A DNA stretch of 34,489 nt, from contig JALVPF010000318.1 in NCBI GenBank assembly GCA_027031935.1, positions 1-34,489 on the forward strand. The letters run 5' to 3'. This document shows positions 1 to 10,290 of this stretch, one piece after another. Each line of letters opens with the position of its first letter. Within the stretch, counting starts at the first letter, position 1. Position numbers and translations under genes: made by a program. The notes under the pieces are model-generated. The model was given only the letters and a program-made list of their open reading frames with translations. It was not told the DNA's origin and searched no databases. The stretch is from Myxococcales bacterium. Lineage in GTDB: Bacteria > Myxococcota > B64-G9.

Positions 1-651
1 GGACGTGACATCGTAAGGGGCCCCAAGGTGTTTTTGTTCGATGAGCCCCTTTCAAACCTGGACGCAAAGCTGAGGGTTCAGATGAGGGCCGAGATCGCCA
101 AGCTGCACCGACGGATAAAAAAGACCATAATATACGTGACTCATGATCAGGTCGAGGCCATGACACTGGCGGATCGCATCGTGATCCTCGAAGGTGGAAA
201 AATTCAGCAGGTGGGAACTCCTCTGGATACTTACGAGCATCCGCGCAACCGCTTCGTGGCCGGGTTTATCGGCAGTCCCTCCATGAATTTTTTACACTGC
301 GAGCTGATCCCTGGCCCGGCTCTGAAGGGGGAAGGCTTTTTGCTCGACCTGCCCGAAGTGCACCATGGTGCAGTGAAAGGCCGGGAAGGTAATGTAACAC
401 TTGGCCTTCGACCCAATCACTTCAGAATCGTCAGCGATAAGGGTGATGCCAAAGCTGCCCTCAGCGCCGAGGTGGAGGTCGTCGAACCCATGGGGTCCGA
501 GACCATACTTTATGCGAGGCTTGGGGGAACCCTGATGAATATTAGAGAGGAGTCAGCTACGACACTGGCGGTGGGAGATCCCGTGTCTCTAGTGCCCTTG
601 TTGGAGCATGCTCATCTTTTTGATGCAGAGACGGGAGAGGCGATATTCTGA
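1..651 (+). CDS. ABC transporter ATP-binding protein, MalK/UgpC-like (5' end truncated by window)
   Basis: Frame is open from base 1 (GRDIVRGPKVFLFDEPLSNLDAKLRVQMRAEI): Walker B and D-loop of MalK-type ATPases, H-loop YVTHDQVEAMTLADRI, C-terminal TOBE-like region. Confidence 0.93.
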   Translation, partial: GRDIVRGPKVFLFDEPLSNLDAKLRVQMRAEIAKLHRRIKKTIIYVTHDQVEAMTLADRIVILEGGKIQQVGTPLDTYEHPRNRFVAGFIGSPSMNFLHCELIPGPALKGEGFLLDLPEVHHGAVKGREGNVTLGLRPNHFRIVSDKGDAKAALSAEVEVVEPMGSETILYARLGGTLMNIREESATTLAVGDPVSLVPLLEHAHLFDAETGEAIF

Positions 652-2900
652 TGACAGGAAAGCGACGGTGCATATCCCGCATCAGGTGGGCCATTTTTGG
701 GGTTTTGTTTTTATGCAGCGGATTGTCCAATGCAGCACCGCAGAAGGTCACCCTGTGGCACTCCTATAGAGGAAAAGAACGTGCAGCGCTGGAGCAGACC
801 GTCGCTGATTTGAACTCCAGCCATGCAGACTTTCAGATTGAACTCACTTTTCTGCCATACAGCGCATACCTGAACAAGATCAACGCAAGTGTTCCAAGGG
901 GTAATGGCCCTGATTTGTTTATCGCAGCTCACGATCGCATTGGAGGGTGGGCCGATTCCGGGATCATCTCTCCCGTAGAGGGCCTTTTACCTGAAAAGAC
1001 CAGGGAGAGATTTTTTTCAAAGACCATAGAGCCTTTGGTCTATAAACGAAAACTATACGGGCTACCCACCGCCTTCAAATCCACTGCTCTTTTTTACAAC
1101 AGGGCGATGATCAAGCAAGCGCCAGTGGACACGGACCAGATGTTGACCCTGGCGCGAAAGTGGACCTCCGGCGGAGATGATAGTCAGGCAAGCTATGGTC
1201 TTGTATGGAACCATTCGGACCCCTACATCCATGCTTGCTGGCTGTTTGGATTCAAGGGCCAGATTTTCGACTCCCACGGCGAGCTTCACCTGGATTCCAA
1301 AGGCAATATCAAGTCGGTGGAATTTGTTCGCAAGCTGGTAGCCTCTGGCTTCCTGCCAAAGGACGTGGATCCGGTCAAGGTAACCACCCTGTTCAACTCG
1401 GGGCGTGCGGCAATGGTCATAAACGGGCCATGGTTCAGAGCGGAGATTTCAAAAGACATAGACTATGGAGTTGCCTTGCTTCCCCAGGTCAGCTCCAGCG
1501 GTATCAGAGCCAGGCCCTTCGTGGGAACGGAGGCTGTCTTGTTGTCCGCAAAAGCTCATGATGCCGGGATGGCTGTCAGGGTGATGGATTTGCTTACCTC
1601 TGACGAGGCGGCTGGCGTGAGGATGCGCAAGGGACTGCAGCCAGTGGCCAATGTCTCTCTCTATGGCCAGCAGAAGGATGCAGCGGATCCTGCGTTGGGC
1701 ATATTTCGGCAACAGTTGAAATATGCGGTCCCCATGAGTTCGAGTCCCGAGATGTCCCTGGTGTGGGAACCCTTGAAGATGGCGCTGGACGAAGCTATCG
1801 CGGGCAGGGCTTCTGCCGCACAGGCATTGGGTGAAGCACAGCGAAAGGCATCACTCAGGATAAAGCAGTACAGACAAGGCGCAAACCTCAAGGCGGATAC
1901 CGGTGGACAGGAGCAGTTGCTGCAAGCGGTGTTCTGGGGTGTCACCGGTGCAGTGCTGGTCATGTTGATATTCGTGGCTGTGTTTTTCAAGCGCTTCAAG
2001 TCCATGCTCAAGGAGGCCTGGAGACAGCGAACGGCATATGGATACATAGGGCCTGCCATGTTGGCCATTGGGCTGCTGGTGTTCGTTCCTTTTGTCGTGG
2101 GCCTCGGCCTGGGTTTTTTTCGATACTACCAGGGTGAGTATTTTTATGTGGGGGGACAGAATTTCGTGGATATTCTTTCCTCCCGCGAATACTCCATCAC
2201 GGATTCTTTCAGCTTTTATTACAAGTTATTCATAACCATCTTGTGGACCGGCCTGAACGTGTTCATCCATTTGGCTATAGGATTGGGACTTGCCCTGCTT
2301 CTCAAGGATCCCCTGCTGAAGATGAAGGGCTTGTACCGGGTGTTGTTGATCATTCCCTGGGCCGTGCCCAATTACATAACTGCAATAATCTGGCGAGGGA
2401 TGTTCGATGCTGACGACGGGGTGGTAAACCACCTTCTGGGCATAGAGGGCTTTTCCTGGTGGCAACATACGTCCACTGCCTTTATTGCCAATCTGGTGGC
2501 AAACTGCTGGCTTGGCTTTCCTTTCATGATGGTCATCAGTCTCGGCGCGCTTCAGTCAATCCCCAAAGAACTCTACGACGCTGCTGATGTGGATGGCGCT
2601 ACGGGGTGGCAGAAGTTCCGGCGAATAACCCTGCCCTTGCTCAAACCAGCCCTGTTTCCGGCGATTATCCTGGGGTCCATCTGGACCTTCAACATGTTCA
2701 ATATCATCTACCTGGTCAGCCGTGGCGCTCCGAACGGCGGGACCGATATTCTGGTCATAGAGGCTTTCAGGTGGGCTTTTGAAAGGGGGGACAGGTACGG
2801 TTATGCGGCAGCATATTCCACTCTGATCTTTGTGATTCTCTTTCTGTACACAATCGTTACAAACAGAATTTCAAAGGCTACGGAAGGGGCGTTTGACTGA
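651..2900 (+). CDS. Fusion of extracellular solute-binding protein (MalE-like) and ABC permease (MalF-like)
   Basis: 749 aa. Signal-like N-terminus, then SBP family 1 sequence (VTLWHSYRGKERAALEQ, PDLFIAAHDRIGGWADSGII, AAMVINGPWF), then TM segments with permease EAA-like loop (LYDAADVDGATGWQKFRRITLPLLKPAL). Overlaps the upstream stop. Confidence 0.9.
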   Translation: MTGKRRCISRIRWAIFGVLFLCSGLSNAAPQKVTLWHSYRGKERAALEQTVADLNSSHADFQIELTFLPYSAYLNKINASVPRGNGPDLFIAAHDRIGGWADSGIISPVEGLLPEKTRERFFSKTIEPLVYKRKLYGLPTAFKSTALFYNRAMIKQAPVDTDQMLTLARKWTSGGDDSQASYGLVWNHSDPYIHACWLFGFKGQIFDSHGELHLDSKGNIKSVEFVRKLVASGFLPKDVDPVKVTTLFNSGRAAMVINGPWFRAEISKDIDYGVALLPQVSSSGIRARPFVGTEAVLLSAKAHDAGMAVRVMDLLTSDEAAGVRMRKGLQPVANVSLYGQQKDAADPALGIFRQQLKYAVPMSSSPEMSLVWEPLKMALDEAIAGRASAAQALGEAQRKASLRIKQYRQGANLKADTGGQEQLLQAVFWGVTGAVLVMLIFVAVFFKRFKSMLKEAWRQRTAYGYIGPAMLAIGLLVFVPFVVGLGLGFFRYYQGEYFYVGGQNFVDILSSREYSITDSFSFYYKLFITILWTGLNVFIHLAIGLGLALLLKDPLLKMKGLYRVLLIIPWAVPNYITAIIWRGMFDADDGVVNHLLGIEGFSWWQHTSTAFIANLVANCWLGFPFMMVISLGALQSIPKELYDAADVDGATGWQKFRRITLPLLKPALFPAIILGSIWTFNMFNIIYLVSRGAPNGGTDILVIEAFRWAFERGDRYGYAAAYSTLIFVILFLYTIVTNRISKATEGAFD

Positions 2901-4102
2901 TGGCCATCAGGGGATCAAAATCCAGAGCAAGAATGATAGCCAAGCACCTGTTTCTCATCATCTTCTGCATATCCATTCTTTTTCCCGTGGCAAAGGTGTT
3001 TCAGATCGCCCTTCAGGATCGGCAAAGCTTTGACACCTCTTTGCTCCCTGTCCCTAATCCTGATTTGTTCACCTTTGACAATTTCAAGTACGTAGTGACC
3101 CGCTCCAAGAAGAAGGGCTTGGGACCTGAACTGAACGAACAGGAGGTGGGTCGGCTGGCCTCCTTGCTCTCTGGCATCAAAAAGCCTGTCCATGATGTGC
3201 CTTCTGATGACTCCCCCGGTTCCATGAACACATGGTCCCCTAAGCCTGCCTTGTTGGCTCCTTTGAAAGAAAAGCGCTGCCTGTCTTGTCACTATTTGGG
3301 GTCTTTGGGTCGCAAGGATGGCCTGGGTGGTGATCTGGCATGGGCCTCCGGTCGCTCCCGCGGGATGTTGGCAAGATGGCTTTCAACTCCTACACCCGCT
3401 TTAGCTCGCGAACTGGGCATCAGCGATAATCCCACGGGCTTGATGAGCACGGAAAATGTGTGGCTGTTCGGGCACCAACTCTTCAATTCCGTCATAGTAT
3501 CTTTGGTGACCACCTTGCTCGGAGTGTTCCTCGCCTGCACCGCGGCTTATGCTTTCAGCCGCTTTCGCTTTCCAGGGCGCAGGGCTGGCTTGTTGAGCTT
3601 TTTGGTCATACAGATGTTTCCTGGAACCATGATGATGATTCCACTGTACCTGCTCATCGACAAGCTGGGCTTGCTCGATCAGCTTCTGGGCCTCATCCTC
3701 GTGTATTCCACGACCTCGGTGCCCTTTTGCGTATGGACCCTGAAGGGATACTTCGATACCATCCCCAGGGAACTGGAGGAATCGGCCATAGTGGATGGCG
3801 CCAGCAGGTTCAGGATATTCTGGTCCATAATCATACCCCTGGCCAGACCGGCCATTGCAGTGACAGCCTTGTTCTCCTTCATGACGGCATGGAACGAGTT
3901 TATTCTTGCCGCCACTTTCATGAACGATGAGACCGCCACAACGCTGCCCGTGATGTTGAATGGCTTTGTGTCAGAGACCAACGTGGAATGGGGCCACTTC
4001 GCTGCGGGGGCCATAATCGTATCCATTCCTGTGGTCGCGCTGTTTTTTGCCCTTCAACGTCACCTGGTGGGTGGACTTACTGCAGGTGGCGTAAAAGGTT
4101 AG
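2900..4102 (+). CDS. ABC sugar permease, MalG-like, with ~119-aa periplasmic-loop insertion containing CxxCH
   Basis: 400 aa. EAA loop ELEESAIVDGASRFRIFWSIIIPLARPA, AYAFSRFRFPGRRAG. Insertion between NFKYVVTRS and WLFGHQLFNSVIVS contains CLSCH. Confidence 0.9.
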   Translation: MAIRGSKSRARMIAKHLFLIIFCISILFPVAKVFQIALQDRQSFDTSLLPVPNPDLFTFDNFKYVVTRSKKKGLGPELNEQEVGRLASLLSGIKKPVHDVPSDDSPGSMNTWSPKPALLAPLKEKRCLSCHYLGSLGRKDGLGGDLAWASGRSRGMLARWLSTPTPALARELGISDNPTGLMSTENVWLFGHQLFNSVIVSLVTTLLGVFLACTAAYAFSRFRFPGRRAGLLSFLVIQMFPGTMMMIPLYLLIDKLGLLDQLLGLILVYSTTSVPFCVWTLKGYFDTIPRELEESAIVDGASRFRIFWSIIIPLARPAIAVTALFSFMTAWNEFILAATFMNDETATTLPVMLNGFVSETNVEWGHFAAGAIIVSIPVVALFFALQRHLVGGLTAGGVKG

Positions 4103-4126: not shown

Positions 4127-5467
4127 ATGAGAAATCCTTTTGGATTGGATAGACCGGATATACTGGATCTGGCACCACCTCAGCCCAGAAACGTGGACGA
4201 GACCGGATTGACCCTGGGTTTTTTAACAGACTTGTCCATCAAGTTTCTGTATTACGCCGGGGTGATGTCCGGGGTGCAGATAGCGGATGAGCTGGGCTTA
4301 CCATTTACAGGGGTGGTTGAGGAGGTAATTCATTTTATAGCAGAGGAACGTCTGGTGGAGATGAAGGGAGGAAAGGGCTTTGGAAGAGCATCTTTTTCCT
4401 ACACCTTGACCGAGAGAGGTAGAGAGGTCGCCAGGGAGGCGGTTCGTCGTTCATCTTACACCGGAAAGGCTCCAGTTCCCCTGGAGCAGTATTCTTCACT
4501 GATTCGTTTGCAGATGCAGGACATACCATTTATCACCAAGGATGATCTGATTCGGCATTTCAAGGGGCTCGTGTTACCAGACGATTTTTTCGAACGTATC
4601 GGTCCGGCTGTAAATTCCAGTCGTTCGCTTTTCTTGTATGGTCCCCCGGGAAACGGCAAGACCACCGTGGCTGAGATGATTGCCGATTTGCTTGCAGGCG
4701 AGGTGTTCGTGCCCCATGCAATCGAGATAGACAGTCAGGTCATCAAGGTCTTCGATCCCCTCAACCATAAACCCATAGACCTGGATCGCAGGGTGCAACC
4801 ACCTCCCATGCGTGGAATCAAGACACCGGTCAAGAGAAAGGCGGGACCTGAGTTCGACAGGCGTTGGATGTTGTCCAAGAGACCATCGGTCATGGTGGGC
4901 GGCGAACTGACCCTGGAGACTCTGGACCTGATTTACAACCCGAATACACAGTTTTACGAGGCTCCTTTTCAGATCAAGGCAAACGGTGGCATGTTGCTCA
5001 TCGATGACTTTGGCCGCCAGAGAGTCCACCCTACGGATCTGTTGAATCGGTGGATCGTTCCCTTGGAAAAGCATATCGATTTTCTCACCCTGCATACAGG
5101 GAAGAAGTTCGAGATTCCTTTTGACCAGTTGATCATTTTCGCCACCAACCTGGACCCGAAGGAACTGGTGGACGAGGCTTTTCTCAGGCGAATCAAATAT
5201 AAGATCGAGGTTACCAACCCGACCGAAAGGGAGTACAAGGAAATTTTTAAGGGAGCATGTGTAGCAAAGGGGATCAGGTATTCTGAGGACGCACTGAGAT
5301 ATATTTTTGATACCTATTACAGAAAGAACGACATGGAAATGCGCTCGTGTCATCCAAGAGACATCATATCCCTGCTTGGCGATGTTGCCAGATTCCGGTC
5401 GGTAAAAGCCCAGTTGACCAAGGATCTCATAGATCAGGCATGTGAATCTTTCTTTGTAACGATGTAA
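4127..5467 (+). CDS. AAA-family ATPase with N-terminal winged-helix-like region
   Basis: Walker A GPPGNGKTTVAE, Walker B-like GGMLLIDDFG, sensor IIFATNLDP, arginine region FLRRIKYKIEV. 25 bp after the permease stop, same strand. Confidence 0.85.
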   Translation: MRNPFGLDRPDILDLAPPQPRNVDETGLTLGFLTDLSIKFLYYAGVMSGVQIADELGLPFTGVVEEVIHFIAEERLVEMKGGKGFGRASFSYTLTERGREVAREAVRRSSYTGKAPVPLEQYSSLIRLQMQDIPFITKDDLIRHFKGLVLPDDFFERIGPAVNSSRSLFLYGPPGNGKTTVAEMIADLLAGEVFVPHAIEIDSQVIKVFDPLNHKPIDLDRRVQPPPMRGIKTPVKRKAGPEFDRRWMLSKRPSVMVGGELTLETLDLIYNPNTQFYEAPFQIKANGGMLLIDDFGRQRVHPTDLLNRWIVPLEKHIDFLTLHTGKKFEIPFDQLIIFATNLDPKELVDEAFLRRIKYKIEVTNPTEREYKEIFKGACVAKGIRYSEDALRYIFDTYYRKNDMEMRSCHPRDIISLLGDVARFRSVKAQLTKDLIDQACESFFVTM

Positions 5468-5492
5468 CTCTCTGTTTGTTCAGAGTTTTTTT
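5466..5492 (+). terminator. Candidate rho-independent terminator after AAA gene
   Basis: aactctctgtttgttcagagttttttt: AACTCT/AGAGTT inverted repeat followed by a T run. Short, AT-rich stem. Confidence 0.45.
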
Positions 5493-5590
5493 GCGATAAT
5501 TTGACTTTTGCCCATATTTATGTTAGGCCTCGGCAGCTTTTGTGGTGGCTTTTTGTGTGTTCTTTGTAGTGCCAGAGTGAAACGAGGGAG

Positions 5591-6337
5591 TTGGTGGTGC
5601 GTACAGTCTACTTTGACATTGATGACAAGACCGAAGACCTTAAACGCAATCTTAAAAAAAACAAGGATTTGGCAAAGGACTTCGACGAGAGGTTCGAGGT
5701 CTCATGGATTTTTCATGAGAACGCATTGGAAGGTACGGTCCTGGATGTTTTCGATCTCAAGGCAGCCCTTGATCATGTGGCCTCCAATGACGGTGTCCTC
5801 ATTCCAGTGTATCAACGCATTAGGAATCATAAAAACGCAATCGATAAAATCAAGCAGACCGCCGTCGATTCCAATCGAGCCCCAACTCTGTCCCTGATCA
5901 AGAACCTGCACCAGATTCTTTCTTTTGGCCTGTCAAATCAGGGTGCTGGCGTATATCGCAAGGATATTCCCATTCACAGGACTTATTTCCACGAAATATC
6001 GTCACCTAGCAAGATAGCCACCGAGATGGACAAGTTGCTTAAAAAGATAAAGTCCGCAGCTTTCCGACAGCATCATCCCATCCTTCAGGCAGCAGAGGTC
6101 CATTACGAGTTCATGAACATCTTTCCCTTTGATTCAGATTCCGGAAAGGTAGCTCGCTTGCTCATGAACCTGTTTGTCATACGAGCCGGGTACATGCCCG
6201 TGATCATTCCTCACGTGGAACGTCAGCGATATTATGATGCGCTGCGATTGGGATCTTCGGATGTGCACTCTCTTATAGTCGATTGTCTCCAGCATCAACT
6301 GGATCAATCACTGAAATACTTCCAGGAGTTGGAATAA
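5591..6337 (+). CDS. Fic-domain protein with degenerate Fic motif (probable TTG start)
   Basis: 248 aa. FHENALEGTVLD resembles the HSNAIEGNTLT inhibitory-helix region of Fic proteins. NIFPFDSDSGKVARLLMNLFVIRAGYMPVII aligns with the HPFxxGNGRxxR region. Confidence 0.8.
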   Translation: MVVRTVYFDIDDKTEDLKRNLKKNKDLAKDFDERFEVSWIFHENALEGTVLDVFDLKAALDHVASNDGVLIPVYQRIRNHKNAIDKIKQTAVDSNRAPTLSLIKNLHQILSFGLSNQGAGVYRKDIPIHRTYFHEISSPSKIATEMDKLLKKIKSAAFRQHHPILQAAEVHYEFMNIFPFDSDSGKVARLLMNLFVIRAGYMPVIIPHVERQRYYDALRLGSSDVHSLIVDCLQHQLDQSLKYFQELE

Positions 6338-8319: not shown

Positions 8320-10290
8320 TCAGGAGAAGTCGAGTTCTTCCACTGCTTTTTCTATGGTGTCTTGCAACGTTTCGATTTGTTCGGAGATGGAATCCACTTC
8401 TTTTCTCAATTTCTCCAGTTGTTCTTCTTCTATGCCCAGTTTTGTAACATATTTTTGCCGTAGCTTTGCTTCTTCACTGGATGTCCCTAAGGCCTTCAAA
8501 TTTTCACGCAGTCGCGCCTGGCCATCTTCCACACGCTGGATTTTTTCTTCCAGTTTGTCCCTCTTTTCTGACAGACGAGAGATGGACTCGGCCATTTCTG
8601 CAATTGATTCCAGTTGATCTTTAATGCTGTCGGCAATGAGACCCTGTTTTGCCAAGGATTCTATCTCGTAAAAGGAAATACCAGGTATGTGAACAGACTC
8701 TGTTTCGTGGGCAATCTCCGTGACCTCAAGGTCTATTTTTTCATGGGCTGAGACCTGTATCTTGAATCTCCAGAAGTTGTCCGTTATCTCTTCCGGTTCC
8801 ATTGTGTCCAGGCGCGAGTCATAGGTGAATCTGTGGTCCACGTATGTTGTCATGGCCCTGTCCAGACCAGAATGAAAATGGTAGGTGGTCTTGAGAAGAT
8901 TGCGGTAGTGTTTATAGATGTACTGGGAGTGCTTGCTTACCCGGGTGTAATTTTCCCTATGGGTGATCCTGTCTTTTGATACCTTGATTCCCAACTCCAC
9001 GGAGTAAGGTGTAATACGTTTTTCATCTTTGCGCATGGTGTCGAGCATGGCCTCTCCGACGTACGAGTCACCCTCGAACACTGTCACTGGGCCGCCTTCC
9101 AGGGTAAGACCAGTGGTGTTCTTTATCCTGAAGGCAGTCATGGGATTTTTTTCTCTGACTTCCTCGTTGTAGATAGCGACCCTTTCCACGTCCGTGTCCT
9201 TTTGCAGTATTGGGACGAGAGCCGATCGTCCTGATGCCACGTCCACCGGGTGGGTAATCTCGTAGGCGAACAGGTCACCCACTTCCTGGGTCCTGGTGTG
9301 GACCTGGGTTGACTTTCGGGCCAGCTTGGCCATGGGAGCAGGAGGAGGCGCTGCCGCTGCCGGTGCCATTCTCTTGGCCCTTGCTGCGGATCTCATGGGC
9401 ATTTGCTCTGCCATCTCCTCGGGGTACTGCTCTCCCATCATGTCCATGGAGTCCAGGCTTGCCTCAAGCACCGGTGGCGCAACCGCAGCTTCTTCTTCTA
9501 CTTCTATCACTGGGCGCTGCCGGTATCTTGGAGTGTAGAGATCGTGGATGAAGGAAATTGGAAGACCCGCCACGAGAGAAAGAGAGACTTGCTTCCAATC
9601 GTCTTCGGTGGTGTTGTCCACGAGGGCCCAACCCTGCAGCAGGGCCTTGTCTTCGGGAGAGCCCGGCAGAACGATACGGTATGAAGTCTTCCACACAGGG
9701 GCCTCAATAACATAGGAGATACTCACTTTTCGCATGCCGTCACCAACGGCTTGTATGCTCAAGCGTTTTCTGTCTTTGCGCAGACCCGAGAACAAAATGT
9801 CCAGCAGTGTGCGAAGGTCTTTCTTGATGGTGTCGTCTTCAAAGGTCAACTCGGAGATTTCCAAAAGGGGTATGCGGACGAGCTTAGCGTCATCGGACAG
9901 TATGGCGAGATGGGGCTCTGTGAGCATGCCGTTGGCCCCTGTGCGCTTGACCTCCTCTATGCCAACGATGGAGCCGGAGATGGAAGAGGAGCCCTGGGCA
10001 ACAGATACAGTTGCACCTTTGAGTTGGTCGAGGAAAGCTGAGATGGCGCTCTTGGGTGGAATTTCCATGCTGAGTTCTGCCAGCCTGCGATCCAGGGGCT
10101 CTTCGCTGTCGTAGGAAAGTGCCGCAAATGATCCTCCCCCGTAGTCCAGGGCAGTCAGGCTCTTGAGCACGTCGTTCATCTGTGCAGCCTTGAATCCAAG
10201 TTCGATCATGTCTCTTCCGTCTACCATTCCTGTTCTCTGAAAATATCCAACCCCGTGTTTGAACAGCACGACTCTTGTAATGGGAAGCAT
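8320..10290 (-). CDS. DUF4139-like protein with C-terminal coiled coil
   Basis: 656 aa. MLPITRVVLFKHGVGYFQRTG start, ISYVIEAPVWKTSYRIVLP core motif (typical of DUF4139 proteins), Met/Ala/Pro-rich central linker, Glu/Lys-rich heptad C-terminus. Confidence 0.6.
   Translation of the reverse strand: MLPITRVVLFKHGVGYFQRTGMVDGRDMIELGFKAAQMNDVLKSLTALDYGGGSFAALSYDSEEPLDRRLAELSMEIPPKSAISAFLDQLKGATVSVAQGSSSISGSIVGIEEVKRTGANGMLTEPHLAILSDDAKLVRIPLLEISELTFEDDTIKKDLRTLLDILFSGLRKDRKRLSIQAVGDGMRKVSISYVIEAPVWKTSYRIVLPGSPEDKALLQGWALVDNTTEDDWKQVSLSLVAGLPISFIHDLYTPRYRQRPVIEVEEEAAVAPPVLEASLDSMDMMGEQYPEEMAEQMPMRSAARAKRMAPAAAAPPPAPMAKLARKSTQVHTRTQEVGDLFAYEITHPVDVASGRSALVPILQKDTDVERVAIYNEEVREKNPMTAFRIKNTTGLTLEGGPVTVFEGDSYVGEAMLDTMRKDEKRITPYSVELGIKVSKDRITHRENYTRVSKHSQYIYKHYRNLLKTTYHFHSGLDRAMTTYVDHRFTYDSRLDTMEPEEITDNFWRFKIQVSAHEKIDLEVTEIAHETESVHIPGISFYEIESLAKQGLIADSIKDQLESIAEMAESISRLSEKRDKLEEKIQRVEDGQARLRENLKALGTSSEEAKLRQKYVTKLGIEEEQLEKLRKEVDSISEQIETLQDTIEKAVEELDFS

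What the first reader, a model, noticed from the sequence alone, without database searches (positions are those of the whole stretch)
5591..6337. Pseudo-Fic protein: catalytic His and key GNGR residues replaced
Seen: the aligned motif reads IFPFDSDSGKVAR (6119-6157) against canonical HPFxxGNGRxxR. His becomes Phe, Gly-Asn becomes Asp-Ser and Arg becomes Lys, while the inhibitory-helix-like HENALEGT region is kept. Known: the motif His is required for Fic AMP/phosphate/UMP transfer. Inference: a non-catalytic or repurposed Fic fold, possibly a regulator or substrate-binding partner of the adjacent AAA ATPase.
Basis: partly seen in the sequence, partly recalled or inferred. Interest (0 to 1): 0.62.

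Follow-up and report, generated by a model that had tools for sequence, protein, structure and literature searches.

The report
Core myxobacterial Fic without catalytic histidine
Almost every bacterium sampled in this phylum keeps one copy of a protein built like the Fic enzymes that tag other proteins with AMP, but this copy lost the tagging residues long ago and is still preserved by selection, so it probably does an unknown, non-AMPylating job.

Summary
The ORF (most likely 5597-6337, GTG start) has the Fic fold: PF02661 50.8 bits, AlphaFold pLDDT 93.9, Foldseek TM 0.86-0.89 to human FICD. Its motif is FPFDSDSGKVAR in place of HPFx[D/E]GNGRxxR. It is not local decay. An ortholog, nearly always single-copy, occurs in 175 of 195 genomes of the phylum (Myxococcota by record titles) and in three further GTDB phyla. 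In 107 orthologs examined, His is replaced in 106, the loop Asn in nearly all, and the inhibitory-motif Ser by Asp/Glu in 107. The inhibitory Glu/Asp and second motif Arg are kept in 107. They form one group, split from 27 canonical Fics at 100/100 support. dN/dS is about 0.06-0.33.

The AAA link holds only in part. A MoxR-like AAA gene lies directly upstream in 78 of 82 genomes where both were placed (six families), but many genomes keep the Fic without it and 0 of 51 outside-phylum genomes have it.

Best reading: an ancient pseudo-Fic, locked against nucleotide transfer, acting by binding; partner unknown. A repurposed enzyme, as with AvrB, is not excluded. Degenerate Fic proteins are known; a phylum-core family of them was not found in the literature searched.

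The parts
6119..6157 (+). degenerate Fic active-site loop IFPFDSDSGKVAR (F176 P177 F178 ... G183 K184 ... R187 in protein numbering)
5714..5737 (+). inhibitory-helix motif HENALEGT (H40 E41 ... E45 G46); canonical Ser replaced by acid, inhibitory Glu kept
5957..6001 (+). flap region RKDIPIHRTYFHEIS (R121, P125, H127, R128, Y130, H132), conserved in a family-specific way
5501..5529 (+). promoter-like element TTGACT-N17-TAGGCC upstream of the Fic gene; weak in the window itself, but the same arrangement scores well above shuffles in six of seven close relatives
5470..5492 (+). terminator-like hairpin plus T run just after the AAA stop codon
4127..5467 (+). AAA ATPase (MoxR-like, with N-terminal winged-helix-like region), adjacent gene conserved in part of the phylum

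Best explanation
A vertically kept, single-copy pseudo-Fic of the class II type (inhibitory helix N-terminal to the Fic core). Shown by sequence: it lost the catalytic base (His), the loop Asn, usually the first Gly and often the metal acid. It kept the residues of the auto-inhibitory salt bridge (inhibitory Glu/Asp45 and motif Arg187) and has a second acid in the inhibitory helix (Asp/Glu41 for Ser). Inferred: the pocket cannot do His-dependent AMP transfer, and the domain acts as a locked binding module (scaffold, adaptor or allosteric regulator) through its flap and outer surface. In six families of the phylum it may work beside the neighbouring MoxR-like AAA ATPase, but its original role does not need that ATPase. 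The partner is unknown.
For: Fold. Near-universal, nearly always single-copy presence, 175/195 genomes, 141/149 of the high-quality ones. Motif loss in 106/107 orthologs against 27/27 His in canonical Fics. E/D at 41 in 107/107 (canonical S/T/G), E/D at 45 in 107/107, R187 in 107/107. One group with 100/100 support on a long branch (1.48). Purifying selection, dN/dS 0.055-0.33 in pairs with unsaturated dS. Most invariant residues that are also common in canonical Fics (R121, G183, R187, Y212, G46, R209) are fold residues; of the family-specific flap residues only Y130 stays near-invariant outside the phylum, which argues against a new universal catalytic centre. Precedent: BepC acts with its catalytic His mutated (PMC7842913).
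Against: No binding partner, phenotype or biochemistry is known. Loss of the usual catalytic residues does not exclude other chemistry: AvrB lacks the motif and is a rhamnosyltransferase (PMC10866546). A residue set that is strongly conserved inside the phylum (H127, R128, Y130, H132, R209, Q210) could be an active site. No atomic coordinates were available to test residue distances, so the salt bridge is inferred from FICD.
Confidence: 0.6

Rival explanations
1. A repurposed transferase: the Fic fold keeps a working pocket with new catalytic residues (flap H127/R128/Y130/H132, acid 41, K184) and uses a different cosubstrate, as AvrB does.
For: Family-specific conserved polar residues in the flap (H127 65/66, R128 61/66, Y130 66/66, H132 66/66 inside the phylum); retained G183, R187 and the R-Q-x-Y-Y stretch that aligns with FICD R-S-D-Y-Y.
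Against: H127, R128 and H132 are replaced in part of the outside-phylum orthologs (kept in 31, 31 and 33 of 41) and K184 varies to R/M/T/V; acid 41 and E45 next to R187 would oppose binding of a phosphate donor.
Confidence: 0.25
2. A dedicated partner or regulator of the adjacent MoxR-like AAA ATPase: the two form one chaperone-like machine.
For: AAA gene directly upstream on the same strand in 78 of 82 genomes where both were located, in six families; the AAA is strongly conserved (mean column identity 76%) with intact P-loop and GGMLLIDDFGR.
Against: Fic is present without this AAA in many families of the phylum and in 51 of 51 outside-phylum genomes tested; unlinked in two genomes; separate promoter-like element in the window's family. 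An apparent joint absence in two genomes turned out to be uninformative: in G112 the flanking ilvE region is missing as well, in G173 the locus lies at a contig end.
Confidence: 0.2
3. Residual AMPylation or deAMPylation without the motif His, so that it is still an ordinary Fic enzyme.
For: Some His mutants of Fic proteins keep traces of activity (IbpA, cited in PMC4454073); the inhibitory Glu, which FICD uses for deAMPylation (own knowledge), is kept.
Against: His, Asn, first Gly and the first Arg are changed together; the metal acid is K/R in 30 of 41 outside-phylum orthologs.
Confidence: 0.06
4. A decaying pseudogene or sequencing error.
For: Active-site residues lost.
Against: 107 orthologs share the change, frames are open apart from isolated breaks, dN/dS is well under 1.
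Confidence: 0.01

Closest known systems
Human FICD / class II Fic proteins (SoFic, BtFic)
   Same: Fold (TM 0.86-0.89), N-terminal inhibitory helix with E45 aligned to FICD E234, and R187 aligned to FICD R374 (residue numbers of FICD from memory)
   Different: Catalytic His, Asn, first Gly and metal acid gone; inhibitory Ser/Thr replaced by acid; no TPR domain
Bartonella effector FIC domains with broken motifs (Bep8 PFxxGNE; BepC)
   Same: Fic domains kept after losing AMP transfer; BepC works with its His mutated (PMC8401265, PMC7842913)
   Different: Injected host-directed effectors in one genus; here a conserved chromosomal core gene
Doc clade D2 (His to Gln, PMC4454073)
   Same: A clade of Fic/Doc proteins lacking the catalytic His
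   Different: Doc-like, motif otherwise kept as Qx[FY]x[DE][GV]NKR; 45 sequences, no core-gene distribution described
AvrB (PMC10866546)
   Same: Fido fold without the Fic motif
   Different: A plant-directed effector with rhamnosyltransferase activity; no sequence link tested here

Membership tests
Fic domain superfamily (PF02661) | Significant match to the family profile and Fic fold | tested here: met
   50.8 bits against cut-off 24; Foldseek FICD TM 0.86-0.89
Canonical Fic AMP transferases | HPFx[D/E]GNGRxxR motif with catalytic His | tested here: not met
   FPFDSDSGKVAR in the window; His in 1 of 107 orthologs
Canonical Fic AMP transferases | AMP transfer to a protein target | not testable with these tools
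   needs purified protein
Class II (inhibitory helix N-terminal) Fic proteins | [S/T]xxxE[G/N] helix N-terminal to the core | tested here: inconclusive
   helix, Glu and Gly kept at HENALEGT, but the Ser/Thr is Asp/Glu in 107/107
Fic toxin-antitoxin modules (FicTA, Doc/Phd) | small antitoxin gene beside the Fic gene | tested here: inconclusive
   recurrent neighbours are ilvE, AAA, DHH phosphoesterase, nfo, ribA; no recurring antitoxin-like cluster was seen, but only ORFs of 100 aa or more were clustered, and antitoxins can be shorter
AAA-Fic two-component machine (proposed) | obligate co-occurrence of the two genes | tested here: not met

The most novel reading that the evidence does not exclude
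A phylum-wide core Fido-fold protein with its own conserved non-AMPylating role: either a new transferase chemistry centred on the rebuilt flap, or a housekeeping pseudo-Fic that regulates a basic myxobacterial process.
Probability: 0.35. Interest if true: 0.75.

Novelty: new variant of a known kind. Interest (0 to 1): 0.55.

Why it matters
Fic proteins are usually thought of as toxins, effectors or stress regulators with patchy occurrence. A single-copy Fic-fold protein present in about 90% of the sampled genomes of a phylum, with its catalytic machinery lost before the group diversified, suggests a housekeeping role for a Fic fold without AMPylation. Profile-based annotation assigns it to the Fic family, which suggests the wrong function. 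Myxococcus xanthus is genetically tractable, so the question can be tested directly.

Tried and rejected
Co-loss of AAA and Fic in G112 and G173 looked like evidence for coupling; a DNA search showed that in G112 the flanking ilvE region is also unmatched and that in G173 the locus runs into a contig end, so this was dropped. A metal or catalytic centre from H40/H127/H132 was considered; H127 and H132 are not always kept outside the phylum and no coordinates were available to measure distances. The AAA model was too poor for a fold search (pLDDT 49.6). PDB sequence matches of the AAA cover only the region around its P-loop. PADLOC hits (PDC-S04, SoFic, IetA) reflect general Fic and P-loop similarity, not a shown defence system. 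The surroundings of the second AAA paralog gave no clue. BFVD matches are viral Fic proteins at TM about 0.6. Literature searches for Fic with myxobacteria, Myxococcus or Anaeromyxobacter found nothing relevant. The only scan of genome contigs was a single-sequence search that found only close relatives.

Full report
WHAT IS THERE. The window encodes a 246-aa protein at 5597-6337 (+). It matches Pfam Fic (PF02661, 50.8 bits, cut-off 24) and FICD structures by sequence (E 2e-16). An AlphaFold model from 66 orthologs has mean pLDDT 93.9 and pTM 0.91, and its best PDB matches are human FICD at TM 0.86-0.89 and about 24% identity. So it is a Fic fold of the kind with the inhibitory helix before the core. 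No NCBIfam model reaches its cut-off.

THE MOTIF. In protein numbering the active-site loop reads F176 P F D S D S G183 K V A R187 against HPFx[D/E]GNGRxxR. The inhibitory motif reads H40 E41 N A L E45 G46.

NOT LOCAL DECAY. A profile search found an ortholog in 175 of 195 genomes of the phylum at E <= 1e-30 (one match per genome except one genome with two), and in 141 of 149 high-quality genomes. Outside the phylum it is found in 5 of 5 genomes of one GTDB phylum, in 68 of 189 sampled genomes of another at E <= 1e-35, and split over two contig ends in the single genome held of a third; not every one of the 68 was inspected for its motif. One of these genomes is a 10,327,335-base single contig, which from memory fits Sandaracinus, so the second phylum is probably the former Polyangia; this was not confirmed.

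RESIDUES. Counts over 66 phylum orthologs, 41 outside-phylum orthologs and 27 canonical Fics: position 176 is F/Y in all 66 and mostly Y/F/M/W in the 41 (one His, L152, among Tyr-bearing relatives), and His in 27/27 canonical. Position 182 is S/T/N/A in the 66 and S/T/P in the 41, and Asn in 27/27. Position 41 is Glu/Asp in 107/107, and S/T/G in the canonical set. E/D45 is kept in 107/107, R187 in 107/107, G183 in 105/107. The metal-binding acid position (180) is mostly E/D in the phylum but K/R in 30 of 41 outside. Family-specific flap residues are H127, R128, Y130 and H132; only Y130 stays near-invariant outside the phylum. The canonical comparison set is small and was drawn from hits to the pseudo-Fic profile plus one Fic (L001) of the window's own genome.

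HISTORY AND SELECTION. In an 81-row maximum-likelihood tree all pseudo-Fics lie on one side of a branch with 100/100 support and length 1.48; the canonical Fics lie on the other. The simplest reading is one ancient loss. Pairs of close orthologs give dN/dS 0.055 to 0.33 where dS is not saturated. The protein is under purifying selection.

NEIGHBOURS. The upstream AAA ATPase (4127-5467) has an intact P-loop and Walker B region. In 82 genomes where both genes were located, it lies directly upstream of the Fic gene on the same strand in 78, in GTDB families f1, f8, f27, f28, f29 and f31; two are unlinked (G008, G093) and two lie on separate contigs near contig ends (G116, G132). Elsewhere the Fic gene directly follows an aminotransferase class IV (ilvE-like) gene in about 20 loci, and is followed by a DHH phosphoesterase (15), an endonuclease IV-like gene (10), GTP cyclohydrolase II (9) or a TPR protein (6). 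These are mostly housekeeping genes and do not name a function. None of 51 outside-phylum genomes with the Fic protein has the AAA at E <= 1e-50 (no positive control was among those genomes, but the AAA is readily found inside the phylum). In the window's family the Fic gene has its own TTGAC[AT]-N17-TA promoter-like element 67-112 bases upstream of the start, also in L010 and L042 where the AAA is not adjacent; in the window itself it is weak and was not picked out by the script. A terminator-like hairpin follows the AAA stop in the window (5470-5485). So the pair looks like a conserved neighbourhood rather than one transcription unit.

HOW IT MOST LIKELY WORKS. Shown: fold (predicted with high confidence), residue losses and retentions, distribution, single grouping, selection. 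Inferred from Fic biochemistry (motif roles as in PMC8401265): His is the base, Asn holds the loop, the first Gly is needed sterically, D/E binds Mg, the two Arg coordinate the beta and gamma phosphates. With most of these lost and two acids in the inhibitory helix, AMP transfer is very unlikely and the domain is probably held in the inhibited state. The most likely role is binding. A new activity, as in AvrB (PMC10866546), remains possible. The AAA may be a partner in some lineages, but not the original one.

WHAT IS KNOWN. Fic-fold proteins with broken motifs have been described: Doc clade D2 with His to Gln (PMC4454073), Bep groups with glutamate at the second Gly (PMC8401265), and BepC, whose effect survives His mutation (PMC7842913). 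No paper in the library searched describes a myxobacterial pseudo-Fic, but the library holds open-licence papers only. This is therefore a new family-level variant of a known kind: a degenerate Fic that is a core gene.

LIMITS. No coordinates of the model could be read, so no distances were measured. The number of truly independent sequences is smaller than 107. Function is inference throughout.

Noticed in passing
window 2900-4102: MalG-type ABC permease with an extra-membrane insert carrying a heme-c motif (CxxCH) followed by a PTG[AL]M-like Met, conserved in L005, L006, L008 and L041: a cytochrome-c-like domain inside a sugar-type ABC importer.
   Followed up: partly
window 651-2900: Natural fusion of a solute-binding protein (PF01547) with a MalF-type permease (PF00528).
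   Followed up: partly
L058 8787-9611, L086 7004-7825 and other f8 orthologs: An insert of about 20-25 charged residues just before the flap (e.g. RARMERRERTEKELAKERDR) splits profile matches into halves.
   Followed up: no
L152: The only ortholog seen with His at the catalytic position (QIHPFARHSGKLARLLMN), without the GNGR part.
   Followed up: no
L070 and L071, between AAA and Fic: The AAA-Fic gap of about 1 kb holds a gene with a HE[LA]GHALA motif, likely an M50-type membrane protease.
   Followed up: no
window 8320-10290: 655-aa protein with coiled coil and only a sub-threshold DUF4139 match, next to an M1 peptidase gene.
   Followed up: no
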